Positions 13,983 to 55,878 of a stretch of DNA of 64,000 bases are shown one piece after another (position 1 is the stretch's first letter; each line of letters opens with the position of its first letter). The notes beneath the pieces are model-generated. The model searched no databases, was not told the origin of the DNA, and saw nothing but the letters and a program-made list of their open reading frames with translations. A program made the translations under genes and the position numbers. The DNA is from Chrysaora quinquecirrha (Eukaryota; Cnidaria; Scyphozoa; Semaeostomeae; Pelagiidae). Location: positions 26,554-90,553 of the forward strand of contig JACTAT010000346.1 of assembly GCA_014526335.1 (NCBI GenBank), read 5' to 3'.

Positions 13983-14282
13983 ACGGTTATCTTTCTGAAC
14001 TTACGTTTTCTGTCTCGTTCTCATATTACCATGGTTACAGTGATGTCAACGATAAGTAGTTGTAATGGCCTAAATCTACCGGGTCTAAAACGCTGTGAAA
14101 AACAATGTTTCTTCATCTTAAAACTTAACTTACTAATTGTTTTGCAGAAAGCTCTTACCAACCCAGCTTTTTCGATATTCGTTCAAAATTTTTTGCGTTA
14201 TTTAGTACTAAAACGGCTGCCGAACAGGGCTCGTATGTTTTGCTGTTTTGCTGTGAGGAGGCAATGAACCAGCCTCGTTTCA

Positions 14283-15128: not shown

Positions 15129-15504
15129 ACTCCCAGGTATCAAAATTTCCTAAATTTGTAAAAGAACTTATGCAACCATACCTTGAGTTAGCGGTTGCAT
15201 CATTCAGAGCAGGGCAGATTTCTTCTCATCTCTCGTCATGGGAACGTATCACCTCAGACCCCTACATACTGCAGATCGTTGAAGGAGATCAATTAGAGTT
15301 TTATCAAATCCCACCCGAGCAACGAACGTACCCTAAAAATATTATATCCACTGATCATTCCCCCCTTTTTAAAGAGGAAATCGAAAATCTCGTGGCCAAA
15401 AAGTTCCTTGTACATTCCGCACACGAAACACCTGAATTTATTTCTCCAATTTTCTCTGTGCCGAAACCAGATAATAAAATACGTCTCATATTAAATTTAA
15501 AAAT

Positions 15505-15626
15505 AGCAACGCTATCGCAATGTCCGAAGGACAATAATCATCATCATTATCGTCATCATTTTCATGGAAGTCGTTATCATCATCGTAATCGTTATGGTCA
15601 TCATCAACATCATCATCATCATCATC

Positions 15627-15672
<46 letters not shown>

Positions 15673-15894
15673 ACAACAACAACATCATCATCATCATCAA
15701 CAACATGTTCATTGTCGTTATCACCATCATCATGTTCATTCAGGCTTTAGCGAGTTCCAGTTTTGCAGCTTCTGCAGGATCTGTAGCGCTCAAGTACGAC
15801 GATAATAATCATGACAGTGAGGACGAGGACGACGATGATGATGATGATAATGATAATGATGATGTTCAAGATGATGATGATGTTGAAGAAGATA

Positions 15895-15935
<41 letters not shown>

Positions 15936-16423
15936 AATAAACAAAATCACACGAGATCAGCAGCAATTTCTACCGCGCCACTCTTTCCTCCCTTGTTTAC
16001 ACGCAAATTTGCACGCATCAGAACCTTGAGAATCTTCTGACGACAACAACCCTCTCAAAATAAATGACATCGACATCGACATCAGCAACAACATGCGCAA
16101 CGCAAAAGGCTAATAAAAGTATTTTATTGTGCAATATGCAAATACAAAAACTTTGAGAATTAATTATCAACAAATTGAGCTTCGAGAATCTTCTGCCAGA
16201 ACTTTAACCACAATGAATCATCTTGTTTACAAACTTCGTTATTGCTTCTGATTGTCAAATAATTGGTATTCATAACATCCAATTACGGCGACTTCAAATT
16301 TTACTTCCTAGCATTTGTGGTTTATCTTTTGTTACGCTTTTTGGCAGGAAAAAGCGTCTATACATGTATCCATACATCGTTACATGCGTTCCACAAACAC
16401 CCTCTCATTATGTCCTTCGGACA
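15505..16423. mobile_element. 919-bp insertion with opposed CAT and GAT microsatellites
   Basis: TAAAAAT flanks it at 15498-15504 and 16424-16430, and removing it restores the RT frame. Near the left end is ATGTCCGAAGGACA and at the right end TATGTCCTTCGGACA, each itself a small palindrome. The body holds a CAT-rich tract (15538-15740) and, further on, a GAT-rich tract (15826-15936). No transposase. The left end carries ~14 extra bases outside the shared inverted motif, so the exact borders are uncertain. Confidence 0.72.
15538..15936. repeat. (CAT)n tract facing a (GAT)n tract
   Basis: CATCAT-rich sequence at 15538-15740 and GATGAT-rich sequence at 15826-15936 are complementary in inverted orientation, so one strand could fold into a long imperfect hairpin. 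The His, Ile, Met and Asp runs read from it are translation artefacts. Confidence 0.9.
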
Positions 16424-17622
16424 TAAAAATGTCAAACACTTACGTAACATATCATCATTTTAAGATGGAGACCATTGAAAGTGTTTTACAAATGGTCACT
16501 CCACATTGCTGGATGGCATCTCTTGATCTTAAAGATGCTTACTATAGCGTAAAAATCCATCCAGATGATCAACGTTATTTGAAATTTATTTTTAATGATC
16601 AATTATACCAATACACTGCCTTCCCTGACGGTTCGTCGTCCTGCCCTCGCCAATTTACGAAACTCGTAAAGCCTCCACTTGCAACATTGAGGGCACAAGG
16701 CCACATCATTGCTAGCTACATAGACGATATTTATTTGCAAAGTGCAACATATGACGGGTGCGTTTGCACTATACTTGCCACTTTTAAACTTTTTGACCAG
16801 CTCGGATTTGTCATCCGCCCAGAAAAGTCTGATTTCTACCCAAAGCATCAGCTCACCTTTTTAGGCTTTGTTATTGACTCTGCGTTAATGCAGATTCGCT
16901 TAAAACCCCAACGGGAAGAAAAATTAAAAGCTGTCCTGCAGTCCACTCGCGCTCACGCACAATACTTGAAAATTCGAGACACAGCTTGTGCAGTGGGGCA
17001 TATCATCTCTAGTCTTCCAGCTGTCCCCTCCGGTGGCATACACTATCGGTGGCTAGAGAGGGACAAAATACTTGCTTTAAAACGAGCGCGAGGTAATTTT
17101 CAAGCATACATGTCTTTAAGCGAAGAAGCCATTCAGGAACTTGATTGGTGGCTCACCAATTTTGCAGGCAGCTTTGCCCCAATATTTCAACCTCCATTTG
17201 ATATAACATTATACTCTGATGCCTCCCTGATGGGTTGGGGTGCAGCTCTGGAAAATTCCTCAACAGGAGGTAAATGGACAAACTCAGAAGCATCACTACA
17301 CATTAATGCTCTTGAGCTCTTAGCAGCATATTTTGCGCTTAAAGCTTTCCACTCTGTCCTTGTTGGGAAACATATAAAACTGATGTTGGATAGCACTACA
17401 GCAGTTGCTGTTATAAATCACATGGGCACCAATCACAGTGATGCATGCAACCGTATTGCTATAAAAATCTGGACCTTCTGTCAAGAGCACAATATGTGGC
17501 TCACCGCCTGTCACATTCCCGGCAAATCAAATACAATTGCCGATCTGGAATCTCGGGGGCTTGCTAAGCAAGACGCAGAATGGATGATAAACTCCGATAT
17601 TTTAACAAGCGCACTATTATAA

Positions 17623-18895
17623 TTAAATTTCAAACCCGAAATTGATCTATTTGCTACCAGATTAAACACACAATTTCCCAGGTACTGCTCGCTGCGCCCT
17701 GACCCCGATGCCTTTGCCATTGATGCCTTTACGTTGCCTTGGCACAGTTTAAAATTCGATTCTTTCCCGCCATTTAGTTGCATCTTACAAGTACTACGCA
17801 AATTACGAGCCGAACAAGCGACGGGATTGTTGTTGTTCCAGATTGGCCAACACAACCCTGGTACCCTCTATTGTTACAATTACTTGTCGTACTTCCAATC
17901 AAATCAAGCCCCACCCATCAGTTCTGTCCTTAGCAACAATGCCAGATGCAATACATCGCCTTCACTCTCACCTGCCCCTACTTGTTTGCCTGGTGTCCGG
18001 CAAGACCTCTCAGCGCAAGGTTTAACCGAGCCTTCAATAGAAATAATAATGGCTTCATGGAGAGATTCTACCAAGAAGCAATATCAAACCCATCTTAAAC
18101 GTTGGTTCGCTTTCTGCCAAGAAAAGCTATGTGATCCGGTCCGACCTTCAATTAGCTCTGCAATAGAATTTCTAACCACGCAATATAAAGCTGGTCTATC
18201 TTACAGCTCGCTCAATACAGCTCGCTCTGCACTTTTGTCTCTAATTGTATTACCACATACAGATATAACCTTTGGTGAGCTCCCAGTTGTTCGCAGATTC
18301 ATGCGTGGAGTTTTTCAGCTTAGACCTGCTCTGCCAAGATACAACTCGATCTGGTCCGTAAAGAAAGTTCTTGATTACCTGCGTAGATCACCACGAAATG
18401 CAGAACTTGATCTGAAAAGTCTCACCCTTAGATTGACATTCCTTTTATGCCTCTTGAGCGCACAGCGTTGTCAGACTATTCACTCCTTGCGAGTCGATCA
18501 AATGACTTTAATGGACACTTCGTTCGCTTTTTTAATTACTGAGAAGTTGAAACATACACGCCCTGGAAAACACCTACAACCTATTACGTTTAATCATTAC
18601 TCAACTGAGCCATGCATATGCCCGCATTGCTACCTACATGAATATTTGAATCGCACTAAACAATTGCGTAGCGGCTGTACTCAATTACTGATTAGCTTCG
18701 CTCGTCCTCATGCTGCAGTATGAACGGATACTATTTCTCGATGGTGACGAAATGTACTTTCAAGCGCTGGAATAGATATAGACAAATTTACTAGCCATAG
18801 TACACGTGCTTCAGCAACCTCGGTTCTAGCTGCCAAAAACATTCCTTTAAAAAACATTATGCTTGCTGCCGGATGGATTCTCATCATACTTGTAT
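17623..18895 (+). pseudogene. DIRS tyrosine recombinase, C-terminus lost
   Basis: It continues in the RT frame after the stop at 17620. The recombinase core begins near 18040 (IIMASWRDSTKKQYQTHLKR) with an N-terminal SAM-like region. The catalytic Arg lies in LSAQRCQTIHSLR (~18470). A TGA at 18721-18723 interrupts it, and the HxxR box is read in the same frame as HSTRAS near 18796. The sequence then departs from the family after LAAGW (~18876), before the expected Tyr. This enzyme would integrate circular DNA copies; this copy cannot. Confidence 0.82.
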
Positions 18896-19170: not shown

Positions 19171-21821
19171 TCGAACAAGCAAGAGATTCAACCAAAAAAC
19201 ATGTATCAGAGCCCTATTTTTAGACAACCAGTGCAACAAATTAACTTTCCTTGTGATTTGAATGATTTTGCTGAGAAAGTTGCAAAGAAAGTAGTTAAAT
19301 TGACAAAGGCCCTGCCTAAAAGTGAACAGCCATCTAGTGTCATCCAAAAGATTGAGTCAAAGGCAGAAAAGTTTTTGCAGAAATTTCCAACCTTCGAAAT
19401 TCTTGGTGAAAGTCAATGCAAAGTTCTAAGATGTAGAGAATGTTTTCTATTTTCAACTTCACTTTCCTCAACTGCAACAAAGCCTTCAGGCAACACAAAT
19501 GGTTCCTTAAGCCTTGGTTTGCAGATAAGTGATGACAAAATGACAAAATTACTGTCAGGCAACTGCGATTTGTGGTGGCATCAAAAAGCAAAGCTTCTGG
19601 ACCATCTGTCTGGTGATACTCACCAAAAAGCCACAATTCATGCTAAATCACTAGAAAAAGGCTTGAAACGGGAAATCAAAGTGGTAAAAAATCAATTGCG
19701 TACAGCATTAGGCATTATCAAATCAAAACTGCAGCAATACACTACGAAGAAAGAATTGGTGAGCTATTTTTGGCAGGTGGAGATGTTGGTGACTTTGGCC
19801 ATTCAAGAAAGCTTTTCCCAGAAATGTTGTCAGTAATGGCATCTTACATTGACAAAAGAACAGCTGAATTCTTAGCAACACCTCTACCAAATACTGGATT
19901 GAAGCCAAACTTCTACGTAACAGCAGACAAGTCAACAAATTTGCGAAAACAAAATCAAGTATCAATGATCTGCCCAGTCGTTGATGGAAAGCGCCAAGGT
20001 ATTCCATTGAATATGCACCTGGTTTATCAGGTTGTTGATGGTGTTGGTGGGGCTAATGATATTCTTGGTGAAGCCATTTTACAAGACCTTGAGACTTTTG
20101 CCAATATAAAAGGATCTTCTTTGTTGCAGATGCAAGGCAAAGTTGTTGACGGGCAATATGTTAACAGAAAATTCATTGAAGCAATGAACAAATCAATTCT
20201 TGATGCATTAAAGAATGTTTATACCCCGGAAGGATTAGAGTATGGTCTTACAGATTCATTTTGGTGGCCATGCCAGTGGGACCCAGCACACTGGTTAGAT
20301 AAAGTGTTTTCTGAAATGAAAGATGATGTATTTGTAAGCAGATTATTGAGAAGAACTGCTTTGTACCATCAGATATTTGGAAGAGGAAAAATGCACAGCA
20401 TTGCTTCTGAAAAATCCAAAGAGCTAAGTCTGCCTTTCCGCGTAACAAATACCTTTGCTCATCAAAGGTTCCTAAGTTCAAGTTACCTGTCTTTGCAAAA
20501 TTTAGAGGAGAGTTTAGAGGTTTACATAGAGGCATTCAAAGACCACGATAACAGGGAAGATATTGGCTACCAGATGTTTGGGCAGGAATTTGTTACTGAT
20601 CTTCTTGGTATGTTAGATTTGCTGTGGCCACTAGTTGTGTTGATGCTTCAAATGCAGGCACAGTGGTGTCCTGGATGGAAACTTGAAAGATATGTACCAA
20701 AGGTACGAAAGCAAATGGAGATGTTCTGCAACACCATTGAAGAGGAAATACCACCAACTGAAGCATCCCCGTGACTCAACAAACATGTGCAGTCAATAAA
20801 ATGCTTTAAGTATGGCAAATGTGATTTAGAGGTAGGTTGGTTTGTTGTGGGTACCCCAGCTGCCGGGAAGCCAGTTGATTGGACTGCACGAGAACTCATA
20901 GACTGCAAAAAAGATTTGAAATCATTGGGTGGAAATATGATAGCTGAGCTTGACAAACGTTTTAAAAACTGCTATCCACTTCTCAATCAGCAATTAGCAG
21001 CTTGTCTTGATTTTGGTCGTTTGTTTACTGGCATTTGTGGCACACGTATCGGATCAGACAATCCAGTCAATAAACGTGAATATGCATCACTGGGAGCAAA
21101 CGAATTTCAACAGTGTGCTCAGTTTGTATCATCCATGCCATCTGTTGCTGAGCAGAACCTAGAATTTGGACCAGACCTAAACGCTGGAGCATTTTGGAAA
21201 CTGAAATCTGCGCTTTTAGAAGTTGTTTGGGGAAAGTTATATACAACCCATTTTTCCAAGTTCTTCAAGTTAAAAAAAGAGATCTCCAAAAAGCCTGGCA
21301 CTGCAGTGCGATACAAGGTTATGATGGAAGAGTTCAAATCAAATCATCTTGGAGACTTTGCAGTAAGTTTTTCGCCAGCAACTTCAGCATTATTTACTTT
21401 GGCAGATGTGTTTAATTTGGAAACAAGCACTGGATCACTTCATCAAGCTACCCTTCAAGAAGATAGGGTTATTAATTGTCTTTACACAGACTCAGAGTTT
21501 TATTCCTTAGTTGGTAGGGAATTTTGTATTGTTTTTGACCACATGCTTGCAAAAACTGGAACAGAATCAACAGCTGAGTCTTTTTACAGAGTAGTGGAGA
21601 ACCAAACTATGGTTGGCAAACAAAGTCCGAATGTATTGTGGAAGCGTGCAAAAACGGATTGGTGTTTCCCACATATAACTCAATGCGAGAAAACAATATC
21701 AGATATGGCACACATTTACGTGGAGGGAGATAAAGAATGCAATCTGAAAAGGCACCTGTCCCGATTTATGCCAGCAGAAGAAACCAAATTAGAAAGATTG
21801 ATGAATTGTCAAAAGTATTAA
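19171..21821 (+). pseudogene. hAT-like transposase-family protein, broken by one frameshift and one stop
   Basis: Three adjoining open segments (19159-19836, 19770-20774, 20787-21821) read as one ~880-residue protein. A one-base slip in the T-run near 19764-19768 separates the first two, and a TGA at 20772-20774 separates the second and third in the same frame. The N-terminal part has a BED/C2HC-like zinc finger (CRECFLFS with KLLDHLSGDTHQKA). The middle has NFYVTADKSTNLRKQNQVS, where hAT/KRAB-type transposase-derived proteins carry a catalytic Asp, and WDPAHWLDKVF. I do not see a clear C-terminal hATC dimerisation motif. TIRs were not found, so it may be a solo gene copy. Confidence 0.6.
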
Positions 21822-25480: not shown

Positions 25481-25959
25481 CTCATCTCTTTTCAAAATCT
25501 TTGAACGATGCCATCGATGGTTCGTATGCACTGCTGTGGCCTGCCCCCACAATTTTCTTTGGGAAGTGATGAATATTTTCATTTTCAAAGGCGTAAAGGC
25601 GAGGTCGCGAGGGGCTATCCCTCGATGGATCAAGAACGAAATGCGCCTGCACAGGCTGTATTTGTACAAGAACGAATTGCGCCTGCACATGGTGTATTAT
25701 GTAAAATGACAGTACATAAAAATCCTACACTCATGATATATTATATATACAAAATGCAACGAACACACGGACATGCGACGAATACCAATGAACAAGTGGA
25801 GACGTCGTCAACATGCGAGCTATGGCTATATTATCATTGTGGCCGTCGCCCTCTTCTTCGTCAAAGAAACGATTACAAACAGCGCAACATTCGCATTATG
25901 ATGCCCAGTTGACGTTATCTACTCAGGTTACAAGGGCAAGTTGAGAGAAATGGTGCTAC

Positions 25960-26560
25960 AGAGAGATGACTGAAAATTCTGTGGACGACGTGAACGGCGT
26001 GGACAGACTTATAGAGAATGATTCTTTATATAAAAAAAAAACCCTCACTATGTGTGGACAGTGTGGATAGAATCAGTCAGGGAATGGTGATAAAGAGAGA
26101 TGACTGAAAATACTGTGGACGACGTGGACGGCGTGGACAGACTTATAGAGAATGATTTTTATATAATAGACAGCCCCAACAATGCGTGGACAACGTGGAT
26201 AGAATCGGTGAGGGAATGGTGATAAAGAGAGATGACTGAAAATACTGTGGACGACGTGGACGGCGTGGACAGACTTATAGAGAATGATTTTTATATAATA
26301 GACAGCCCCAACAATGCGTGGACAACGTGGATAGAATCGGTGAGGGAATGGTGATAAAGAGAGATGACTGAAAATTCTGTGGACGACGTGGACGGCGTGG
26401 ACAGACTTATAGAGGATGATTTTTTATATAATAGACAGCCCCCACAATGCGTGGACAACGTGGATAGAATCAGTGAGGGAATGGGGATACAGAGAGATGA
26501 CTGAAAATACTGTGGAAGACGTGGACGACGTGGACAGACTTGAAACATAGAGAATTATGA
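25960..26560 (+). repeat. 132-bp tandem array, left arm
   Basis: GATGACTGAAAAT recurs at 25965, 26099, 26231, 26363 and 26496, giving steps of 134, 132, 132 and 133 bases. Each unit contains GTGGACGACGTGGACGGCG, itself built of 9-base steps, and TATATAA. Confidence 0.93.
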
Positions 26561-29284: not shown

Positions 29285-29846
29285 ATGTTTCAAGTCTGTC
29301 CACGCCGTCCACGTCGTCCACAGAATTTTCAGTCATCTCTCTGTATCACCATTCCCTCACTGATTCTCTCCACACGGTCCATACATAGTGGGGGCTCTCT
29401 ATTATATAAAAAATCATTCTCTATAAGTCTATCCACGCCGTCCACGTCGTCCACAGTATTTTCAGTCATCTCTCTGTATCCCCATTCCCTCACTGATTCT
29501 ATCCACGTTGTCCATGCATTGTGGGGGCTCTCTTTTATATAAAAAATCATTCTCTATAAGTCTGTCCACGCCGTCCACGTCGTCCACAGAATTTTCAGTC
29601 ATCTCTCTGTACAACCATTCCCTCACTGACTCTATCCACGTTGTCCACGCATTGTGGGGGCTCTCGTTTATATAAAAAATCATTCTCTTTAAGTCTGTCC
29701 ACGCCGTCCACGTCGTCCACAGTATTTTCAGTCATCTCTCTGTATCACCATTCCATCACTTATTGTATCCACGTTGTCCACGTATAGTGGGGGCTGTCTA
29801 TTATATAAAAAATCATTCTCTATAAGTCTGTCCACACCGTCCACGT
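29285..29846 (-). repeat. 132-bp tandem array, right arm, part 1
   Basis: Reverse-complement units with CCGTCCACGTCGTCCACAG at ~130-base steps (near 29306, 29436, 29570 and 29702), and a diverged copy near 29830 into which the BEL element inserted. Confidence 0.9.
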
Positions 29847-30101
29847 TGTCGGAAACTGAATAACCCCCGTGTCTGAAAAATAGACATTTCATAGACAATA
29901 GACATTCCAGCGGAAGTATAGACAATGGACTTTTTCAGACTATTTTTAAACTTTGATATTGCATAACCTTAAGCGTTTTTGATTCGAGAGTTGAGAGTAA
30001 AATGTGAGTTCTAGTTTTGATGTTTTGTTATGTTATAATTCAGAAAATACTAGATCGTGAGTTTTTGTTGTCGTATACTGCAACCTGGTATAATCGCGAC
30101 A
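29847..30101 (+). repeat. 5' LTR of the BEL/Pao element
   Basis: Begins TGTCGGAAACTG and ends AATCGCGACA. The primer-binding site probably begins at 30105 (TGGCACCCCAAG). I could not assign the tRNA. Confidence 0.95.
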
Positions 30102-30116
30102 CAGTGGCACCCCAAG

Positions 30117-33100
30117 ATGGCGAGGCGAGACCTTGATATTCAGGCAGCTTGCAAGAAAATCGAGACAAAAACAAAGCTGTTGGAATTCATATCTGATGAA
30201 ACGAAAGAGATCCTAGAAACCCGCGATAGTACAGCAATCAGGAGACAACTAAACATCTACGGAACGAGAATCGAAGAGATTTTGGAACTAAAAACCATAA
30301 TCCAAGAAGCAAAGATCGAAGAGGACAATGATCCGCAAGAAATCCGAGCTTGGAGTTTGAGCATAGACAAGAATGTCAAGGAATTTAATCCAATCATGGC
30401 GGAAATGAAAGCAGCCTTGAAAGAAATAAAAGAACAAGAACAAAGTGAGGAGGAAAAACAATTTTTATTCACAAAACAAAAACAACTGGAGGTCGAAAAT
30501 AAAATGGAGAGGGAAAAATTGGAGCAAAAGCTGAAATTCGAAAGAAAATTGGAGGAAATGAAAACAGCAGTGAGCAACGAGCAAGTTTCAAAGGTAAAAT
30601 TACCAAAATTAATCATAACGAAATTTCAGGGAACCAATTTAGACTGGTTTCGGTTTTGGAACCAATTTGAGGCCGAAATAGACAAAGCAAAAATTGATTC
30701 TGTCACCAAATTTTCGTACCAAAAGGAGCTTTTGGTGCCTAAAGTTAGAGCCCAAATAGAGGGGTTACCCTTCACACCTGAAGGGTATGAAAGAGCTAAG
30801 AACATATTAAAGACCACATATGGGAAAATAACTGAGGTTGTAAATGCTTATATTCAAAACATCACCTCCCTTCCAACCATCAAGGGGGGAAACGCTGTCA
30901 AGATTCATGAATTCTATGGAAAGCTTTTAACAAGTGTACAGGCCTTAGAATCTTTAGGAAAGCTGAAAGAGATTAGCGGCTTTGCGAGGGCTACTCTTGA
31001 TAAACTTGAGGGTATTCGCTCAGATTTGGTACGTCTTGACGAGGAATGGCAGAATTGGGGCTTTCCAGAGCTTCTAGAAAACCTTAGGAGGTGGACAGAG
31101 AGAAACCCAATATCCCAAGACGACAGAGGAACAAGTGTCAACTTTTCTGAATTCAACCCCGCTAGACAACCAAAGAGAGAGAAAGTATTTCAAACAAGGC
31201 AGCAAGAAGGGAGAAAGAGAGCATGCGTATACTGTGAGAGCAATGAGCACATTTCAACTGACTGTGATACTGTTACAGAGGTTGCTGAGAGAAAAGATCA
31301 TCTGCGAAAGAAAAGGCTGTGTTTTAATTGCACAGGTGCATCTCATCGGGCAGCAGAATGCAGAGTGAAGACTAACTGCAAGATCTGTAGCAGCAGGCAC
31401 CATACATCTGTCTGTGACAAGAAAGACAAGAAGCCAGAACAGGTTCTATTGGCCACAGGAGAGCAAGGAATAATATACCCGGTAGTCCTTGTTAAAGTAA
31501 ATGGCATAACCTGCAGAGCACTACTCGACACAGGAGCAGGGAGCTCGTATATCTCAGCCAAGTTAATAGAGCTAATCGGAAAGAAACCAGCATCCACACA
31601 GGTCAGACAAATCGACATGATGATGTGTACAACAACCAAAAGGATTGAAGTTTATAATGTGGAGGTAAAAAATACAAAGGGAGATTTTGGTCTCAAAGTT
31701 GATGTGAACAAAGTAGAAAAAGAAGTATTACTGACAGTTTCAAACCCTCAATACAAGCAAATCCTAGCCAAGTACTCGCATCTGAGAGGAATAACAATGG
31801 CAGACCAAGATCAGAAAGCTGAATTACCTATTCATTTGATAATTGGTGCATCAGAGTATGCAAAGATTAAAACAGAGACTAAACCAAGAATCGGAAAACC
31901 TGGAGAACCAGTTGGGGAACTGACTAGATTAGGGTGGACGCTAATATCACCTGGAGCAGAGATCGATGACTCAAAAATGTTCTTTGCAAAATCATCATTG
32001 GCAGACTACGACAAGCTTTGCAGCCTTGACGTATTAGGCTTAAGAAATTCTGAAGAAAACGAGTCATCAGTTTATAGTGAGTTCAAGGAGCAGCTGAATC
32101 AGAGCCCTGAGGGATTCTACGAGACCGGATTGATTTGGAAAAACACGAAGCAGGAACTTCCAGACAACAAGGATGGCAGCAGAGCAAGACTAAACAAGCT
32201 TCTTCAAAAACTACAGCAACAACCAGAGCTTTTTGAACAGTACGATCGAATAATGAGAGACCAACAGGAAAATGGAATCATTGAGGAAGCAGAGAAAGAG
32301 CCAGTTGGGAAAGTTTTCTATCTTCCACACAAACCAGTCGTGAGAAAAATGGCAGAAACTACAAAGGTGCGGATAGTATATGACGCTTCAGCAAAAGCAA
32401 CAACCAATGCACCTTCGTTGAACGACTGCCTAGAAACCGTCCCATCCCTGCAGAATCTTATTTGGGATATCCTTGTCAGAAATCGTACAAGACCAGTCAC
32501 ATTAGCAGGGGACATGAAGCAAGCATTCCTGCAGATTAGAGTTAAAGAAAGCGACCGTGATGCTCTTCGGTTTCATTGGATTGTGGACAAAGATTTGAAG
32601 AAGATAAGAACTTTCAGATTTACACGTGTTCTATTTGGCTTAAATCAGTCTCCTTTTATACCTGGGGGTACAATAGAACAACACTTGAACAGCAAAGAAG
32701 CAGAGTACCCAGATGAGGTGAAAGAGATAAAGCGTAGTATTTACGTTGATGATACATTGTTGTCTGGAGAGACGAAGGATGCCATGGAAAAGATGAAAAA
32801 TACAACCATCACCATATTCAAAGATGCAGGGTTCGAGTTGCATTAATGGCATTCGAATTTGCCAGAGCTAGAAGATCAGAAAACAGTCACAGAAAATACA
32901 GATTCTAGTGAACAAAGCTATGCCAAAAGTCAACTTGGTGTGAAGAAAGAGGAAACAAAACTACTAGGCCTTATCTGGAACAAAACTGATGATACCATCG
33001 GAGTAGACTTTCCAGAGAAGCAAGATAATATAACAAAGAGATCTGTATTACAAAACATAGCTTCAGTATACGATCCATTGGGTATCGTTTCTCCTACAAC

Positions 33101-35375
33101 GCTGGTAGGAAAACTGATTTACAGAGATGTATGTGACATGAAAGTACCATGGGATGCAGTGCTGCCTGAACCCTTGCAGAGAAGATGGACAACTTGGATG
33201 AAGAATTTACCAAGTAGAATCGAAATACCAAGAAGTATTACTTGTGCAGTAGAGCCCATAGAGAGTATTGAATTACATGCCTTTGGAGATTCAAGTAGTT
33301 ATGGGACCTCAGCAGCAGTCTACATCGTTGTTTGCCAGAATTCAGGAGTCAGCCAGGGACTCTTAACTGCCAAATCAAGAGTGGCAAAGAAGGCACTCAC
33401 TATACCAAGGCTAGAGCTTACTGCTGGCCACATGGCAGCTAATTTGATATCAAATGTCAAAGCGGCTCTTGATGGATTGCCAGTCAAATCCTGTTATGGT
33501 TGGTTAGACAGCACAGTCGCACTACACTGGATTAAGGGTTCTGGTGAATACAAACAGTTTGTTGAAAATCGAGTGAGACAGATTCGCCTGAAAGATTTCA
33601 TAGTCTGGAGACATGTGGGCACAAAGGAGAATCCAGCAGATATAGGAAGCAGAGGCTCCCAGGGCAATAAAATCCCATCTCAATGGTTTAGCGGCCCTGA
33701 ATGGTTAGCAAACAAGGATAGATGGCCAACCGAGATCACAACAAGAGCAACTGAAACGGCAGAGGCTGAAGCGAAACCAATCAAAGATATCTTCAGAGTA
33801 GTCACTGTCAAGAATGATGAAATGGATCAGATCCTGGACAACTTCAGTTTCAGAAAGACAATGCGTGTAACAGGCTGGATTAAGAGATTCGCTGACAACT
33901 GCAGAACAAATAAAGCTGAACAACGCAGAGGATTGCTAACAACAGAAGAAATCCAAGAACAGATAAACTGGTGGATACGCAGAGTTCAGGAAAGAGCCAT
34001 CGGAATTGACATGTTTGAACATGACAGACAAGCATTGAACCTACAGAAGAACGAACAAGACATCTTCGAGTGCAAAGGACGAATTCAAGGCAATTATCCA
34101 GTTTATCTTCCAAGAAATGAGACATTTACTGGAAAACTTGTAACGGAATGTCATCTCATCACATTGCATGGGGGAGTTGGTTTAACAATGACGGAGGTAC
34201 GACGGAAATACTGGGTACCACGACTCAGACAGCTTGTAAAGAAGCTAAGACATAACTGCAGCGGATGCAAAAGATTCCATGCTAGAGCCGTCCATCAACC
34301 ACCTCCAGGAAACCTACCAAGGGAACGAACTGAAGGTTCAAGGCCTTTTGAGATCATCGGCCTTGATTATGCTGGGCCAATCATGTACAGAGAGAAAGCC
34401 AAGTCTGAGGGGAAGGCATATATATTGTTATTTGCTTGCAGTTTAACAAGAGCAGTTTTCATACAAGTCGTCACAGATATGACTGTCGAGCAATTCAAGC
34501 CAAGCCTAAAGGAGCTAATAGCAAGAAGAGGAAGGCCATCAAAAATCTATTCGGATAATGCAAAGACATTCGTAGCAGCTTCTAAATGGGTGAAGACAAT
34601 CATGAAGAGTGAGAAACTTAACGACTTCTTGATTAAAAATGAAATAAGGTGGCAATTCAATCTGAGCAAGGCCCCATGGTGGGGTGGGCAATTCGAAAGG
34701 ATCATTGGCTTGATTAAGCAGTCTCTTTACAAAGCAGTCGGAGGAGCTCTCCTGAGACTTAACGAGTTAAAAGAAGTCATGTTGGACATTGAAACGGCAT
34801 TGAACAACAGACCACTCAGCTACGTAGAGGACGACGTTCAGCTTCCCGAACTAACACCTAACATGATGGTGCTCGGAGACAACAACGCACTACTCGTCGA
34901 AGATGTACATTCAATCGAGAACAGTGACCTACGTAAAAGAGCGAAATACTTAGAGCAGTGCAAGGACAGACTTTGGAAGAGATGGTCAGGAGAATATTTG
35001 ACTTCACTTCGCGAGAGACACAATATGCGACATGGTACAGTAGAAAATAAGCTATCAGTGGGAGACGTGGTATTGGTAAAGGGCGAGGAACGAAACCGAG
35101 GCAAATGGCATCTGGGAATAGTGGAATCGCTCATTAGAGGAAGAGACGGAATAGTCAGAGCTGCCAGGCTACGGTCAAGAAAAGCCATCATCGAAAGACC
35201 AGTACAGTTGTTATATCCAATGGAGCTTTCATGTGATAGAGTAGAGGAAAGGGCAAGTCAGCGACTGAATATTCAAGCGGCAGAGTTCCGACCGAAGAGA
35301 CATGCAGCGGTTATTGCGCAACAGACAGTCCGAGAAACACTTATAGATGAGGACAGAGAATTAGAAGATGATTGA
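30117..35375 (+). pseudogene. gag-pol: BEL/Pao gag-pol polyprotein, 1752 codons with one premature stop
   Basis: ATG 30117 is chosen because the upstream in-frame ATG (30057) lies inside the LTR. In order: charged coiled-coil gag; the BEL-type gag domain (LPKLIITKFQGTNLDWFRFW); Cys/His knuckles (CVYCESNEHISTDC, CFNCTGASHRAAEC, CKICSSRHHTSVC); aspartic protease with DTGAGSS (Asp ~471); and RT with SIYVDDTLLSG (YVDD ~876-879). A TAA at 32844-32846 (residue 910) follows FELH. The same frame then continues with RNase H (HAFGDSSSYGTSAAV), the integrase HHCC region (HLITLHGG, CSGCKRFH), core residues Asp (34365), Asp (34554) and Glu (34695), and a BEL C-terminal domain (GDVVLVKGEERNRGKWHLG). All key catalytic residues are present. 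The stop is the only lesion seen. Confidence 0.95.
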
Positions 35376-35411: not shown

Positions 35412-35667
35412 TGTCGGAAACTGAATAACCCCCGTGTCTGAAAAATAGACATTTCATAGACAATAGACATTCCAGCGGAAGTATAGACAATGGACTTTTT
35501 CAGACTATTTTTAAACTTTGATATTGCATAACCTTAAGCGTTTTTGATTCGAGAGTTGAGAGTAAAATGTGAGTTCTAGTTTTTGATGTTTTGTTATGTT
35601 ATAATTCAGAAAATACTAGATCGTGAGTTTTTGTTGTCGTATACTGCAACCTGGTATAATCGCGACA
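35412..35667 (+). repeat. 3' LTR of the BEL/Pao element
   Basis: TGTCGG...GCGACA. It is identical to the 5' LTR except for one extra T in the T-run near 35580. Confidence 0.95.
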
Positions 35668-35890
35668 ACGTCGTCCACAGTATTTTCAGTCATCTCTCTT
35701 TATCACCATTCCCTCACTGATTCTATCCACACGGTCCACACATAGTGGGGGCTCTCTATTATATAAAAAATCATTCTCTATAAGTCTGTCCACGCCGTCC
35801 ACGTCATCCACAGTATTTTCAGTCATCTCTCTGTATCACCATTCCCTCACTGATTCTATTCACGTTGTCCACGCATAGTGGGGCTGGCTT
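35668..35890 (-). repeat. 132-bp tandem array, right arm, part 2
   Basis: Continues the 132-bp inverted array interrupted by the BEL element. One partial and one nearly full unit precede the unique outer arm (35890-36060). Confidence 0.9.
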
Positions 35891-36516: not shown

Positions 36517-36689
36517 TAGGAGTATGGGGTGCGATCACCGCCAATATTATTTCAAATCATTATTAGGTAGTCAGATGTCGTTATTCAGTAATTTTGCCGT
36601 GAAGAGGCATTGTTCGTGAACAAAATGCCACGTATTTCTCGTTTTTATCCACATCTTTTTAATATCATGTACTCTTTTCATTATTAAGC

Positions 36690-36920
36690 ACAGTTATCAT
36701 TATTAGGCGCACTTTTCATTATTAGGCATACTTTTCATTATTATGCACACTTTTTATTATTATCGACAGCTGTTTTCATTATTATGCACACTTTTCATTA
36801 TTATGCACACTTTTCTTTATTAGGCACACTTTTCATTATTATGCACACTTTTCTTTATTAGGCACACTCTCTTTATTAGGCACACTTTTCATTATTCATT
36901 ATTAGGCATACTTTGCCACT
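36690..36920 (+). repeat. TIR minisatellite, left arm
   Basis: About twelve ~19-base units of TTTTCATTATTAGGCACAC, with variants (ATGCACAC, GGCATAC). Confidence 0.92.
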
Positions 36921-36988
36921 TCATATATCATAACCCAGTTATAGTTACAGAATAGGCCTACCGGCAAGAAAATCTCTGACGAGCTGAG

Positions 36989-38443
36989 TTGACGAGTCAT
37001 GTTCAATGTAGTATTATGGAGAATGAAATTGGAGAGCTGAAACGGTTGATTACCTCTAGGCTTGAGGAAATAGTTGCCTCTCTTAGTAATGGAACATCTG
37101 AAGGGGATTCTGTCGATTCTGTAATAATCGATGAGCTTGAAAGCATACAGGGATATATAATTACGTTGGACTCGGTTTGCCGTGTGCCAGAAGCTGCAAT
37201 TTCATCTCTTTCTACCGCTAGAAGGCTATTGGAACGGCAAACACAAATGGAAAACAAACCACCCTTACAGCGTGTTGAAGGGGCAGGAAGACCTAGGTAT
37301 GACATTACCAAGCAGCAAATTGAAATATTTCTGAAAGCAAATTTCACAGTGCCCAGCATCGCATCTGTTCTGCACGTTAGCAAGCGCACCGTGGAAAGGC
37401 GCATGAGAGAATACAATTTATCAGTACGGGGTCAATACACAGAGATCACTGATGGCAGACTTGATGAATTTGTTTTGGAAATAAAACAAGTGAATCCTAA
37501 CTGTGGATCTAAGGTGTTGATTGGATATCTTAGTTCTAAAGGTGTAAGGGTGACAAGAGACCGAGTGAGAGATTCCCTTGCTAGAGTTGATCCAATAGGT
37601 ATTGCCGCGCGTCGATGTCAGACAATACACAGGAGATCCTACGACATCACAAGACCTCTTGCACTTTGGCATTTCGATGGGAATCACAAACTTGTCAAAT
37701 GGCGGTTTGTGGTTCATGGCTGTATTGATGGGTACAGCCGTATTCCAGTGTACCTATCATGTTGCCAAGACAACAAGGCATCTACGGTTTATTCCCTTTT
37801 CACAGAAGCTGTGGGCAAATGGGGATTGCCTTCAAGGACAAGGTGTGATCAAGGATCAGAAAACGTTGATGTCGTTCAACACATGCTTCTCGTAAGGGGT
37901 GAGAATAGAGGATCCGCTTTAGTAGGAAGAAGTGTTCACAACCAGCGGATCGAGAGATTGTGGCGTGACGTCTTCAAAGACGTTTTGAGCATTTTTTACG
38001 ACCTTTTTACTCTTATGGAGGAAATAGGCATTCTTGACCCTCTTTCAGAGGGAGATGCCTGGTGCCTGCAATTAGCATTTCTAGAGCATATTGATTACCG
38101 CTTGAAGCAATGGGCAGACGCCTGGATTCGACATCCTTTAAGCAGTGCAGGAAACAAAACACCACTACAGTTATGGATAGAAGGAAGCCTTGCTGTTGCT
38201 GAGCATACAGTTGATCCTTTAGCAGTTCATGACACTTATGGCATTGACTGGAATGGACCTGTCCCTGTTGAAGATGCAAATGTTGCAGTCGATGTGCCCG
38301 GTACAGTATCACCGATGACTGACGAAGAGCTTTCAACTTTCATCAATGATTATACGCACTTGGTACAATCTTCCAGTACAGAAGACAAACTCACGTTGTA
38401 TAAAATGGCAAGAAACCATGTTGCAAATATACATGCTCAATAG
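36989..38443 (+). CDS. DDE integrase-type transposase, 484 residues
   Basis: An uninterrupted frame; an internal ATG at 37016 (MENEIGELKRL) is an equally good start. Residues ~104-142 form a helix-turn-helix (QIEIFLKANFTVPSIASVLH, then SKRTVERRMREY), suited to TIR binding. The catalytic core is rve-like: Asp230 in LWHFDGNHK, Asp287 in TRCDQGSENVD and Glu322 in HNQRIERLW, a DD(34)E spacing. A conserved GCIDGYSR follows the first strand. The C-terminal ~80 residues are acidic and end in a helical stretch. The product would excise and insert the element in the nucleus. Proteins of this type are widespread in cnidarian and fish genomes as 'integrase core domain' proteins. The copy appears functional on paper. 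Confidence 0.88.
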   Translation: MTSHVQCSIMENEIGELKRLITSRLEEIVASLSNGTSEGDSVDSVIIDELESIQGYIITLDSVCRVPEAAISSLSTARRLLERQTQMENKPPLQRVEGAGRPRYDITKQQIEIFLKANFTVPSIASVLHVSKRTVERRMREYNLSVRGQYTEITDGRLDEFVLEIKQVNPNCGSKVLIGYLSSKGVRVTRDRVRDSLARVDPIGIAARRCQTIHRRSYDITRPLALWHFDGNHKLVKWRFVVHGCIDGYSRIPVYLSCCQDNKASTVYSLFTEAVGKWGLPSRTRCDQGSENVDVVQHMLLVRGENRGSALVGRSVHNQRIERLWRDVFKDVLSIFYDLFTLMEEIGILDPLSEGDAWCLQLAFLEHIDYRLKQWADAWIRHPLSSAGNKTPLQLWIEGSLAVAEHTVDPLAVHDTYGIDWNGPVPVEDANVAVDVPGTVSPMTDEELSTFINDYTHLVQSSSTEDKLTLYKMARNHVANIHAQ

Positions 38444-38962
38444 TAGTAACAGAAAAGAAAACAGCTAACAGCTATTTATAAATGTAAAATATACTTTTCC
38501 AAAGCTGCGAATTCTACTCTACCTTCGACTCATCTGCCCGCAATCCGAAGGTGTTTTTATTTCGGCTAAAAAACTACTATATACACAAGTGCGTGTATAT
38601 TTTTGGTCTAATCATCTGTCTTTCGTACATTAGTACTTTGAGATATGCACGAATTATCAAACTTTGTCATATACTTTATAACAGATTCCGAAATTAAAAT
38701 GATTAATTTGTATTCTTTGAAAGTTTGAAAGAAGAAACCTTGTAAAGCACCGTTTAATTTCTAGAGATGAAGGTAAAGCAGTTGATGCAGCTTTAAACAT
38801 AACAGCTCGTAGTAACAGCAATCAATAAACTAACATAACAATAAAGAATAAAATACTCCATATGATGCAAACGATGTTACAAAGAAAAACCGCAATAGTG
38901 AAAAAATGATAATAACATTTCAGTCATATGTATGAAATTCTTCGAATGATGAGCTCATGAGC

Positions 38963-41900
38963 TCAAACCATGCCAAATCCTGGGGAATTTAACATGCAGA
39001 AAAGAAACTCATCTTTGAAGCTTTCATAAGACAGAAGGTGCTCTGCAACAGGGAAATGAATTTCATTGGCACAAGTATGGACATGCAACTTCTTTGGCAA
39101 CTCTTCATAGTCAAAAACAATTCTTGGTTTTGGTGAAAATCCAAGTGGTGGAATAGAAGGGCTTCCAGTGACAAATGCAAGGACTGCTGAAACGTTTATC
39201 TTGATATTTTGTTCCTGCAGATCAAATGTGGTGCTGACAATGTCACCTTGCTCGACATCTTCCAAAAACTGCCTCCAATTAAAAAGGATTGCCATTTCTT
39301 TCTTATGCCGGTTGCTTCCTTTTAGGGATACATGGCTTTGAAAAAGGTTGTCAATCTTCTCTGCTGTTAACCTGTGGTTTTTGAACTCAAAAATATCAGC
39401 AGCTTCAACTGGATATTCTCGCAGCAAATCTAAGACACCAAATACCTTCAACCCATCAATGAATTGATGTATCTCGGCAAGGCTTCTTGTAACTGTGTGA
39501 TGTGTTGCAACCATATTGAGAAATGTATCTTTATTCTCCAAAGTTACATCTGGACTCTTGTATCCAGTGGATCTACATGCAGCACTTCTAGAAATAGATG
39601 ATGAATATGTATCAGCATCTGTCAGACATTCAATAGCTTGCAAATTGGCTTTGACAATTGTATCTGGTATGCATGATACTGGGCATGTAACCATGTCTAG
39701 GTTTTCATTCAGAATGTACTGAACAATTGGAGATGAGAAGGCTTGGGGACCTTGTGCTCCATTCAAGATACCTAGGCCACAACAGAGACCATATGTATAA
39801 TACTCCTTTCTTGCAAGAGCTGGCAGGTTTTGAGCAAAAGCTCTGCCTTCTTGACCAAGAAAAAGTGATGATGACAAAACTTCCTGGTTTATCAGATTGA
39901 ACAGCTCTCTTTTAGGGCCACCATCATCAACAGCAGACTCAGCAACAAAGTTAACTTTCACAAATCCATTCTTAAGAGATGTTTTTATTCGGCCAAGCTT
40001 AAGCTTGACATCCTGCCATACTGAGCTGCGCCTAACTTTCAATCTTATGTACGAGTCTTCCTCATCTTCTCTACATTTATCATTGCATAAACTGGAAAGT
40101 TTTTCAATGAAAGGGATGGCTGAATTCTGAGTCACTTCATCTTGCAAAACACAGTCATCATCTGAATCATCACTTATGTTCAAAGTGATAATGTTACCAT
40201 ATTGGTGGTTTACATAACCATAGTCATGGCATTTTCTTGGAAGGGCTGACATCACTCCAACAGGATCTGGATCAAAATCATAGTTGGTGGACAAGAAATG
40301 AGAATCATCAGACAAGTAATGCAAATCTTGAGCCAACTTCAAATTTCCTTGTTGTAATGACGTATGGCGGTTATCACACAGGTTTGAACTGCTTGGAAGA
40401 GGCAAAGTAGTCTCAACTTTGTGACCTTCAGTGATATGATCAAATTGCTTGTAACATGTTGGACACTTTGAACTTCCATTTCCTGTAGCAAACCATTGCT
40501 CTATACACACACTGTGGAACATGTCACTGCAATTGCTTGGGAATGCAGACTCTGCAATTGATACTATAGGCTCAAGGCAGATACTGCACTGGACATCAAT
40601 TGGGTCGTCATTTGGCTGTTCAGCTTGTTCTGGCTTCTTAGCACAATCCTATTGACATACAAAATTATGTCATTAAAAAATTCCAAAATTTAAAAAATAC
40701 AAAACTATTCATAACCAAAATGTGCATTCAAACATATACTGATAAAGAACTTTTTCACAGCATTGATCTTGTTGGTAATTTTACAAATTTTCAGAATTCC
40801 CAGATATGAAGTTTTTGATGGTACTAGATTTGTATAGACCATTTCAACTAAGAGCCTCGTTTTCAAAAAAATTGAAAATTAGGTTATAGAGAGATTTCGA
40901 CTTCAGATTCGAATTCAGCACCTTCTTTTTGGTGTTGAGGTAAATTTTTACGCTTCTAGTCCTTACAATATTGATTCTATAGCGATTAAAAGTTTGAAAA
41001 TTTATAAGGGATTTGACCGTGTAAAATGATTGAGGGTGTAAAATTTCACCCCCAGCGATTTTTCACGGTCAAATCCTTTATAGCATTTCAAATTTTTAAC
41101 ACCTATAAAATCAATATCTTAAAGACTAGAAGCATAAAACTTTGCCTCAACACTAAAAAGAAGATGCTGAACTCGAATCTGAAGTCGAAATTTCTCTATG
41201 ACCTAATTTTAAATTTTTTTGAAAACGAGGCCCTTAGTTGAAGTGGTCTATTAAGCACTCAAAATTTAGTATAGGTGCAAAGTTTTTTATCTTAGCACCC
41301 ATATAGTTGATTTCATGTTGGTTCAAATTTGCAATTTTATAAGTGCTTAGAGCTAGTGGGGTAAAAAACCTTAGGAATGGTCACTTTCCACAATCAAAGC
41401 CCCTATGAAATTAATAATATCAGCACTAGGATACTGAAACTTTGCAAAATATCAACAACAATGGTAACTAACTCAAGATAAGAACTTTTAAGAAAAACAT
41501 ATTTTATGTCATTTTAAAGAATGAATTGCTTCCTTTCATTCTTGAATCATATTAATTCCCTAACAATTAAATAATTAGCTATACATAATTTGATTTCTAA
41601 CCTTTGCATGCTGTCTGAGATCTACTAATGGAATGAGGTTGAGACAAGTATTGCACAGTTCTTCAGGCAAAAGCACATCATCTGCATCCATGTCCCCACT
41701 GTTGTCAATTTCTGCCATATCAATACTGGACTGGATTGGTCTTACATAGACTTTCCCTTGTCCAATAAACTGACATATGTACTCTACTGAATTTCCTTTT
41801 GGGCCCATAGGGAGCAACAAAAGTTCACGCCTTCCAGGTTCAGCATACATTAGCTCATAACCACCACACGACTGAAGTTGTGGGAAAGCGTTGAGTAAAC

Positions 41901-42342
41901 ATTCATGCAGTTCCACACAGGTGCCACCCTGCGGGAGCATTATCTTCTTCTCACCAAGTCCAGATTGAAGTAATTCACGTTTCAGAGCCTGAGTTGGAAT
42001 TCCTGTTGCTTCTTTGTCAGCTAAGCATAAAAATTTGCGGCTAATCATTTTAGATTTAATGACCTTATTTGATCTTGGGTTTCTTCTTCTTCGAGAGACA
42101 ATTCCACAAACAGGCCTAACTGTTGTCGATGTTGTGTTGGTTGTTGATACAGCAACTGCTGATTCAGATGGTCTCTTCTTCTTATAGATATGTGGAAATA
42201 GCCGTTCCAGCTCCCCACTGCAACTTGAAGATTGCCTATCTGCATCTCTTTTATTTTTTGGGTCTGGTTCTTTTCCACTGATCGTGTCGATTGCTTTTTG
42301 TAATAGATTGCACACTTCCTTTACCTCCTTTCCCTCCGCCAT
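38963..42342 (-). CDS. RING + HECT E3 ubiquitin-protein ligase, transposon-encoded, two exons, 808 residues
   Basis: Exon 1 is 42342-41602 and exon 2 is 40648-38963. The intron begins GTTAGA and ends CAATAG, and the joined frame is open (247 + 561 codons). MAEGKEVK is taken as the start because the upstream frame only translates the minisatellite. The N-terminal half is basic, with a ~100-residue domain of unknown fold (LLQSGLGEKKIMLPQGGTC). A RING finger spans residues ~268-312: CSIC, then CSDMFHSVC, then CPTC. An Asp sits where the usual His of the C-x-H pair is expected. A HECT-like region starts near residue 470 (SAVDDGGPKRELFNLI; KEYYTYGLCCGLGIL) and ends in LHVHTCANEIHFP, with the thioester Cys at ~773, and GFGMV at the C-terminus. 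It resembles G2E3-type HECT ligases. Combining RING and HECT is unusual. The target is unknown. Confidence 0.85.
40835..41250. mobile_element. Palindromic MITE inside the E3 ligase intron
   Basis: The two ~200-bp arms are near-perfect inverses around a short centre at ~41035 (for example TAGACCATTTCAACTAAG at the left end and CTTAGTTGAAGTGGTCTA at the right). The intron is therefore mostly this element plus related flanking sequence. Confidence 0.82.
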
Positions 42343-42399
42343 TTCGAAACATGTGATAAGTTTAGTTGGGCGCCCTTTGAACTCTACAGCAACAGCAAC

Positions 42400-42650
42400 A
42401 ATGAAAGTGTGCATAATAATGAAAAGTGTGCCTAATAATGAAAAGTATGCATAATAATGAAAAGTGTGCATAATAATGAAAAGTATGCCTAATAATGAAA
42501 AGTGTGCATAATAATGAAAGTGTGCATAATAATGAAAAGTGTGCATAATAAAAAAAGTGTGCATAATAATGAAAATTATACCTAATAATGAAAAGTGTGC
42601 CTAATAATGAAACGTGCCCCAAATAATGATAAGTGTGCTTAATAATGAAA
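42400..42650 (-). repeat. TIR minisatellite, right arm
   Basis: Inverse of the left array (GTGTGCATAATAATGAAAA units). It lies directly upstream of the E3 ligase start codon and may hold its promoter. Confidence 0.92.
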
Positions 42651-42832
42651 AGAGTGCATGATATAAAAAAGATGTGGATAAAAACGAGAATACGTGGCAT
42701 TTTGTTCACGAACAATGCCTGTTCATGGCAAAATTACTGAATAACGACATCTGGCTGCCTAATAATGATTTGAAATAATTTTGGCGGTGATCGCACCCCA
42801 TATAGGAGAGAGATTGATTTATACTGGCCTAA

Positions 42833-54500: not shown

Positions 54501-55878
54501 TCCTCAACGAAAATGGATTTTGAACGGTGAGTAAATAGGAAAATAGAAATTTTCAAAGACAGGGTTGTGACTGTGGAAACCTTGAAAACTTTTAGATATA
54601 GAGTCAAACAGTCAAAATTTAGTCTAGAGGCAAAGTTTTACTTCCTTAGCAATTGTTTTATTGATTTTTTGGAGCATTCAAAACTGAGGATTATAAAAAG
54701 GCTTAGACTAGTTTGGGTGTAAAGTATTACCAACAGTCATTTCTCATGGTCAAAGCCCTAATAGAATCAGGAACCTTGAAAGCACATAAAATGAATAGTA
54801 CCAGTGCTAGTTTAGTGTAACTTTGCCCCTATACTAAGCTTTGTATGCTTTGCAAAACTGTTTTACTGCTCTGAAAACCAATTTTTTTCTTTACCAACAG
54901 GGACTGTTGCATATGACACAGTGTACAAAATTTTGATGAACAAAAAACTTCTGCAGGATGTGAAGAGGCTATCTTCAAATGCGCAAACAAGTTGCCTTGA
55001 GGGATACCATGCGACCCTAAACTACTGGCATCCTAAGATGATTCATTTCTCTTGGGCTGGAAGTATCTGCAGGTATGTTATCAAAGGCTAGTCAAATGCT
55101 AACGTGCTGATAACATATTAACACTCATTTACAATTAGAGCTGAAGTAGCTGTTATATCTAATCCAACAGGCATATACTGGCAGTATCCCACTTCAATGA
55201 AAATTTAAAAAAGAGAAACACAAAAATCAAAAGATGGAAAAGATTACTACAAAGTTTCGTATCCCAAATACAAACTCGGAGAAGAGGCAATTAAACCAAT
55301 TCCAGTCCCTCCATCATACAGTAAGTAGATATTGATTACCAATTTGAAATGCTAATTGTTCTCAAATATGCTTGTAATCTTTTGAAAAACATTCATTTTT
55401 AGACTATGTTAAGCGAATCAGAGAAAAACTATTTACAACCACGGAAGAGGAGCTGGAACACATAAATGCCAGGTATTCGGAAAAAGCCCCAAAACCTTAT
55501 GTCAGCAAATTCAAAAAAAACTAAAAGCAAAGAAGAAGCTGTTGATTTGTACAGAAAGAGGAAGACCATGGTCCAATCTTTATATCCATCAGGTACATAA
55601 TATTAGTGTTGTAATTATAATGCATTTTTGTATTGAAGAACAAGCATAAATTCTGCAATCAATTTATGTATTTAAAGGAAAACTTTACATATTTACAAAT
55701 GAAAGAGCTTGTTCTTAATTTTTCAGAAGAAGAACAAAATACTCTCCAGAGAGACAGTGCAGCAAGTAACAGAGCAACAACATCAGATGGGAACAGAAAA
55801 CGGAAGGCTCCATCTTGCAAAAAGTGTGGGCAGCCAATGAAGGGGCATCCAAGGGGTGGTTGCTTGGACCAATCGTAA
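51558..55878 (+). pseudogene. Kolobok transposase (THAP finger + DDE), nine exons, inactivated
   Basis: Exons inferred from GT-AG sites: 51558-52050, 52429-52803, 52929-53131, 53444-53986, 54087-54526, 54901-55073, 55171-55320, 55403-55592, 55727-55878. The THAP finger is CVAGLANGITCSNS, GISMHMFPRKDN, then LCSNHFT. A coiled-coil-like Lys/Gln stretch and an acidic exon follow. Catalytic-core candidates are Asp in CGDGRFDSMGHS, Asp in SDRHKGVAKW and Glu in SCLEGYHATLNYWHP, with FFDIWHVARTV between them. The C-terminus has a CKKCGQPMKGH knuckle. Lesions are a TAA at 51663, slips near 51950, 53715 and 54230, and another in the exon at 55171. Confidence 0.85.

What the first reader, a model, noticed from the sequence alone, without database searches (positions are those of the whole stretch)
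36523..42802. DNA transposon that carries its own RING+HECT E3 ubiquitin ligase
A complete element (6-bp duplication, long TIRs) has two undamaged genes: a DDE transposase and an 808-residue ligase. The ligase has a RING finger, a HECT-like domain with the thioester Cys near 773, and a clean phase-0 intron. The ligase frame has stayed open next to an open transposase frame, which suggests it serves the element, for example by degrading a host silencing factor or controlling transposase level or cell-cycle timing. The function is inference.
Basis: partly seen in the sequence, partly recalled or inferred. Interest (0 to 1): 0.88.

Follow-up and report, generated by a model that had tools for sequence, protein, structure and literature searches.

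The report
Transposon carrying a HECT ubiquitin ligase
A complete 6.3-kilobase cut-and-paste DNA transposon carries, beside an intact transposase gene, an undamaged second gene predicted to encode a HECT-type ubiquitin ligase, which would let the element likely mark host nuclear proteins for removal.

The parts
36517..36522 (.). target-site duplication TAGGAG, left
   Evidence: identical to 42803-42808
36523..36896 (+). left inverted end: outer TIR (36523-36636) plus 19-bp subterminal repeats
   Evidence: outer 114 nt 96% complementary to 42689-42802; 88% over 394 columns to 42802-42415; TRF period 19, 36674-36896, 11.6 copies
37016..38443 (+). transposase gene, 475 aa, DD34E, weak HTH followed by integrase-like core
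   Evidence: open frame; rva_4 249.3 bits; D221/D278/E313; IS481 44.4 and IS3 32 bits, both below NCBIfam cut-offs; at least 1083 relatives
38963..40648 (-). ligase exon 2 (residues 248-808 + stop): last Cys of the CCHC finger, RING 267-312, linker, HECT about 423-808 with Cys773
40649..41601 (-). ligase intron (predicted), phase 0, GT-AG
   Evidence: GTTAGA...CAATAG; splicing completes C230-x2-C233-x11-H245-x3-C249, the spacing seen in relative P0004
40834..41251 (.). foldback (palindromic) repeat inside the ligase intron, probably a nested MITE
   Evidence: 208-nt arms 86% complementary, 2 nt apart
41602..42342 (-). ligase exon 1 (residues 1-247): N-terminal region conserved in P0004, basic stretch 84-98, first three ligands of the CCHC finger
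   Evidence: structure model too poor to use (mean pLDDT 41.6)
42415..42802 (-). right inverted end: outer TIR (42689-42802) plus 19-bp subterminal repeats, just upstream of the ligase start codon
   Evidence: TRF period 19, 42400-42663, 14.1 copies
42803..42808 (.). target-site duplication TAGGAG, right

Best explanation
This is a complete IS3EU-type cut-and-paste DNA transposon with an intact transposase gene and an intact second gene predicted to encode a RING-HECT ubiquitin ligase that likely works in trans on host nuclear proteins, most likely factors that silence the element. Shown by sequence: the ends, the duplication, both open genes and the HECT signature; predicted by modelling: the HECT fold. 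Inferred: (1) both genes are transcribed inward from the 19-bp-repeat ends, which may also be transposase binding sites; (2) the ligase enters the nucleus (basic stretch 84-98) and finds its target through the N-terminal region and CCHC finger; (3) the atypical RING helps dock an E2 or substrate; (4) ubiquitin passes from E2 to Cys773 and on to the substrate; (5) the substrate is a host chromatin or silencing factor whose removal raises expression or mobility of the element. My own split for step 5: host silencing factor about 0.4, transposase turnover about 0.2, repair or cell-cycle factor in the manner of G2E3 about 0.2, no benefit to the element about 0.2.
Against: Only one copy was seen, so it is not shown that the ligase belongs to the family of elements rather than to this copy. 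No dN/dS, no transcript. No target is identified; the SIM-like block in the linker is not clearly better than shuffles (437 of 2000 also give a hit). The RING is atypical. Whether any of the 12 relatives lies in a transposon is unknown, and one (P0129) has Ser in place of the catalytic Cys. The model's C-lobe is only of middling confidence (10-residue blocks 52 to 86, last residue 28), TM-scores to HECT structures are modest (0.56 at best by target length among the listed rows), and Cys773's own segment scores low against E6AP. The ligase is far more CpG-depleted than the transposase about 0.5 kb away, which hints at a different history of the two genes.
Confidence: 0.4

Rival explanations
1. 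The ligase is a passenger: a host G2E3-like gene captured fairly recently between the ends, still open only because the insertion is young, with no function for the element.
For: Ligase exon 2 has CpG o/e 0.16 against 0.65 for the transposase; the window of that size over it is the lowest of 125 in the 64 kb, and CpG falls below a synonymous-codon shuffle (z -6.6 against -2.3): a deamination-like footprint that its neighbour lacks. One relative is a named gene model, G2/M phase-specific E3 ligase-like in Fundulus. The perfect TSD suggests a young insertion. At 5% neutral divergence only about 6 stops would be expected in the ligase.
Against: RING and HECT lie in one exon here, which would be unusual for a gene taken from an animal HECT gene with many introns (recalled expectation). 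Seven of the 8 relatives that reach the position keep the catalytic-type Cys, though whether these are element or host genes is unknown. CpG depletion could equally come from germline methylation of the gene inside the element, and another ORF of the window is also CpG-poor (0.33, 19647-20771).
Confidence: 0.2
2. The ligase regulates the element itself: it ubiquitylates the transposase (dose control, or disassembly of the strand-transfer complex).
For: Both genes sit head-inward behind the same kind of 19-bp repeat array, so co-expression is plausible. RAG1, of transposon origin, has a RING with ubiquitin ligase activity, and a paper on its autoubiquitylation is cited there.
Against: No interaction data. 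The transposase family is large (at least 1083 relatives) against 12 ligase relatives, which suggests that most such transposases manage without a ligase of this kind (the searches differ in sensitivity and are capped).
Confidence: 0.2
3. The ligase tunes repair or cell-cycle state so that excision gaps are mended, as G2E3 acts in G2/M and DNA damage.
For: Profile match to a G2E3-like protein (P0132, E 2.3e-27); G2E3 is implicated in damage signalling (passages); a part of ubiquitin/SUMO enzymes in repair after transposition was proposed for Ginger1.
Against: Identity to P0132 is only 26%; P0132 and P0131 show no RING match; tongue-sole g2e3 has PHD and RING modules, of which only a RING is seen here.
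Confidence: 0.2

Closest known systems
IS3EU (IS3EU/GingerRoot) superfamily of DNA transposons
   Same: TA..TA ends, 6-bp TSD, DDE transposase with similarity to IS3/IS481 and no upstream HHCC finger
   Different: The terms HECT and ubiquitin do not occur in the main text of the two IS3EU papers searched, and no paper held IS3EU and HECT together; the fungal members described carry TET/JBP and alpha-kinase genes
Fungal TET+ IS3EU transposons (PMC12730594, passages read)
   Same: Transposase plus accessory enzyme genes, an accessory gene opposite in orientation to the transposase, TAYGG..CCRTA ends
   Different: Accessory enzymes are a TET/JBP dioxygenase and an alpha-kinase, not a ubiquitin ligase
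Ginger1, Mutator and Helitron elements with Ulp1 or OTU proteases (PMC2836005, passages read)
   Same: Mobile DNA carrying ubiquitin/SUMO-pathway enzymes
   Different: Those are proteases of ubiquitin or SUMO and, in Ginger1, C-terminal domains of the transposase; here the enzyme is predicted to attach ubiquitin and is a separate gene
G2E3 and G2E3-like HECT ligases
   Same: C-terminal HECT; zinc module(s) before it in G2E3; profile match E 2.3e-27 to a Fundulus G2E3-like protein
   Different: Tongue-sole g2e3 has PHD and RING modules; this protein has a CCHC finger, one atypical RING and an N-terminal region without a Pfam match
RAG1 / Chapaev RING (PMC4411706, passages read)
   Same: A RING on a transposon-derived protein; RAG1's RING has ubiquitin ligase activity
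   Different: RING on the transposase itself; HECT not mentioned in the passages seen

Membership tests
IS3EU DNA transposon | TA..TA termini | tested here: met
   TATGGGG...CCCCATA; feature
IS3EU DNA transposon | 6-bp target-site duplication | tested here: met
   TAGGAG on both sides
IS3EU DNA transposon | DDE transposase related to IS3/IS481, without upstream HHCC finger | tested here: met
   DD34E; IS481 44.4 and IS3 32 bits, below NCBIfam cut-offs; no CxxC in the protein
IS3EU DNA transposon | transposase branches with Repbase IS3EU families in a tree | not testable with these tools
   no Repbase sequences at hand
HECT E3 ligase | HECT domain over Pfam cut-off | tested here: met
   46.1 bits against 23.9
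HECT E3 ligase | bilobed HECT fold including the C-lobe | tested here: met
HECT E3 ligase | catalytic Cys in the C-lobe and Phe at -4 | tested here: met
   Cys773 aligned with the HTC Cys of E6AP and AREL1; Phe805; that the -4 Phe matters is recalled
HECT E3 ligase | ubiquitin thioester and ligase activity | not testable with these tools
   needs purified protein
RING-H2 E3 | eight Zn ligands C-C-C-H-H-C-C-C (recalled) | tested here: not met
   Asp289 at ligand 4, Asp also in the 6 relatives that carry the whole RING; the other seven ligands present; still above the Pfam zf-RING_2 cut-off
RING-H2 E3 | Arg linchpin after the last Cys (recalled feature of active RINGs) | tested here: not met
   Tyr313 here; S, G, E, S, G, E, C in 7 RING-bearing relatives
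G2E3 | PHD and RING modules N-terminal to the HECT | tested here: not met
   one RING, no PHD-type match over cut-off; feature
RAD18-like UBZ finger | C-x2-C-x11-H-x3-C finger binding ubiquitin (recalled) | tested here: inconclusive
   spacing met after splicing; the only solved-structure match is FLN29, E 0.82; no Pfam match at this stretch of the ligase over cut-off

The most novel reading that the evidence does not exclude
A lineage of animal IS3EU transposons carries its own HECT ligase (CCHC finger, variant RING, HECT) as a dedicated counter-silencing weapon that destroys a host heterochromatin or small-RNA factor: a mobile-DNA counterpart of viral ubiquitin ligases, and a source of the G2E3-like gene families of animals.
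Probability: 0.25. Interest if true: 0.88.

Novelty: new variant of a known kind. Interest (0 to 1): 0.62.

Why it matters
Transposons are known to carry enzymes that undo DNA methylation or cleave ubiquitin/SUMO; a ubiquitin ligase would give one the means to remove host proteins, as some viruses do (recalled). If other copies keep the ligase under selection, its substrate would point to the host factor that restrains the element, a direct handle on how animals silence DNA transposons. My searches (listings only, 20 shown of 37 and 20 of 118) showed no paper on a transposon-borne HECT ligase; Repbase itself could not be searched.

Tried and rejected
Other copies, dN/dS, empty sites: planned through the genome search on the window's own assembly. 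15 attempts, none answered. Relatives by DNA pattern: ligase alignment in viral contigs and genome contigs, transposase alignment in both, outer TIR 22-mer in viral contigs: no relative found; these collections hold viral and prokaryotic contigs, so this says little about a eukaryotic element.

Co-location of relatives: I compared by eye the longest-contig lengths listed for the ligase relatives (11 of 12 have one) with those of the 120 listed transposase relatives (of 1083) and saw no match; this does not test linkage, as one length is listed per cluster.

SUMO-interacting motif: a strict pattern gave no hit in the ligase; a looser one, made after seeing that, hit IITLNISDDSDD, but 437 of 2000 shuffles also gave a hit; with it, 5 of 10 family members tested had a hit in the 135-residue stretch taken (for P0131 and P0132 that stretch was wrongly placed). 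Not used as evidence. N-terminal region: model of exon 1 too poor (mean pLDDT 41.6), not searched further. UBZ identity: weak.

Rejected: chance open frames (Pfam matches over cut-off, conserved catalytic residues); ligase as a flanking host gene (it lies wholly inside the ends, its start codon about 60 bp from the right-end repeat array).

Papers: the seven papers opened were seen only as passages returned by 'find' (PMC10045372; PMC12730594; PMC12847987; PMC9547173; PMC11394658; PMC4411706; PMC2836005); the rest only as search listings. Paper searches used: 10 of 10.

Full report
Anatomy. The element is 36523-42802, 6,280 bp, between TAGGAG duplications at 36517-36522 and 42803-42808. Its ends read TATGGGGTGCGATCACCGCC inward; the outer 114 nt are 96% complementary and the similarity runs on at 88% over 394 columns. 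Inside each end lies a tandem array of a 19-bp unit (about CTTTTCATTATTAGGCACA), 11.6 copies left and 14.1 right. The transposase gene starts inside the left array and the ligase gene inside the right one, so the two genes converge.

Transposase. One open frame of 475 aa. Pfam rva_4 249.3 bits; D221, D278, E313 with 34 residues between the last two; helix-turn-helix at about 108-134 below the Pfam cut-off. NCBIfam gives IS481 (44.4 bits) and IS3 (32 bits), both below cut-off. No CxxC occurs in it, so the HHCC finger is absent, as stated for IS3EU. Relatives: at least 1083 proteins (candidates were capped), 120 listed, best 83% identical; those with names come from cnidarians, sponges, molluscs, a brachiopod and fishes, among others. 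TA..TA ends with usually 6-bp TSDs are the stated hallmark of IS3EU (passages of PMC10045372), and the TAYGG..CCRTA ends of fungal TET+ IS3EU (passages of PMC12730594) fit. I file the element as IS3EU; a tree with Repbase members could not be made.

Conservation. Twelve relatives: eleven and P0004, found only, for the N-terminal part. Of the 8 (of 11 aligned) that reach the position, 7 have Cys at 773 and one, P0129, has Ser; 8 of 8 have Phe at 805. The 6 relatives that carry the whole RING keep the seven Cys/His seen here and Asp at ligand 4, where RING-H2 has His (recalled); neither the query nor 7 RING-bearing relatives (P0001 has only part of the RING) have Arg after the last Cys. I read this as a RING kept by selection but unlikely to be a strong ligase by itself (inference; the Arg rule is recalled). 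P0131 and P0132 have a HECT and no RING match. [quoted passage not shown]

What it likely does. The HECT is predicted to be active. A basic stretch at 84-98 suggests the nucleus. The target is unknown. By analogy, fungal TET+ IS3EU elements carry dioxygenases thought to defeat methylation, together with an alpha-kinase gene opposite to the transposase, and Ginger1, Mutator and Helitron elements carry ubiquitin/SUMO proteases, for which a part in transposition was proposed. I therefore favour a ligase aimed at a host silencing factor, ahead of transposase turnover, of repair or cell-cycle control like G2E3, and of a passenger gene. None of these was tested.

A result that cuts the other way. 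The ligase coding sequence is strongly CpG-depleted: o/e 0.23 overall, 0.37 in exon 1 and 0.16 in exon 2 (11 CpG against 37.2 in synonymous shuffles, z -6.6), while the transposase has 0.65 (z -2.3) and the four noncoding parts of the element 0.54 to 1.11. Of 125 windows of 1686 nt across the 64 kb, the one over exon 2 is the lowest (0.168, median 0.674). TpG/CpA is raised in exon 2 (1.53). Nine other ORFs of the window have o/e 0.33 to 0.88 and z from -0.6 to -3.6, so the ligase is extreme but not alone. Either the ligase came from a methylated host gene, or it is itself methylated in the germline as an expressed gene body (both inference). The first would favour the passenger rival.

Limits. 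One copy, one window, no transcripts, no nucleotide relatives. That no paper on a transposon-borne HECT ligase turned up rests in an open-access library, seen as listings (20 of 37 papers, 20 of 118); Repbase reports were not searchable.

Noticed in passing
38963-40648 against 37016-38443: Ligase exon 2 has CpG o/e 0.16; the window over it is the lowest of 125 in the 64 kb, while the transposase about 0.5 kb away has 0.65: two genes of one element with different CpG histories.
   Followed up: partly
40834-41251: Foldback (208-nt arms, 86% complementary, 2 nt apart) inside the ligase intron; weak partial matches at 54606-54639 and 54715-54767. Probably a nested MITE.
   Followed up: partly
30054-35375: Two long adjoining open frames (930 and 842 aa, same frame, one stop between) that look like a BEL/Pao-type retrotransposon polyprotein, ending about 1.1 kb before the element (the family name is by eye, no search).
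   Followed up: no
14268-18723: Open frames resembling a DIRS-like retroelement (reverse transcriptase, then a tyrosine-recombinase-like frame) (by eye).
   Followed up: no
relative P0129: One relative of the ligase has Ser in place of the catalytic Cys, though the rest of its C-lobe reads like the others.
   Followed up: no
relatives P0002, P0125, P0126: Their predicted N-termini just before the RING look like intron sequence read in frame, so an intron near the same place as here is possible (for P0002; by eye).
   Followed up: no
25949-26541, 29292-29850, 35663-35883: Related tandem repeats of about 132 bp, some on opposite strands, on both sides of the BEL-like element (relation judged by eye).
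   Followed up: no
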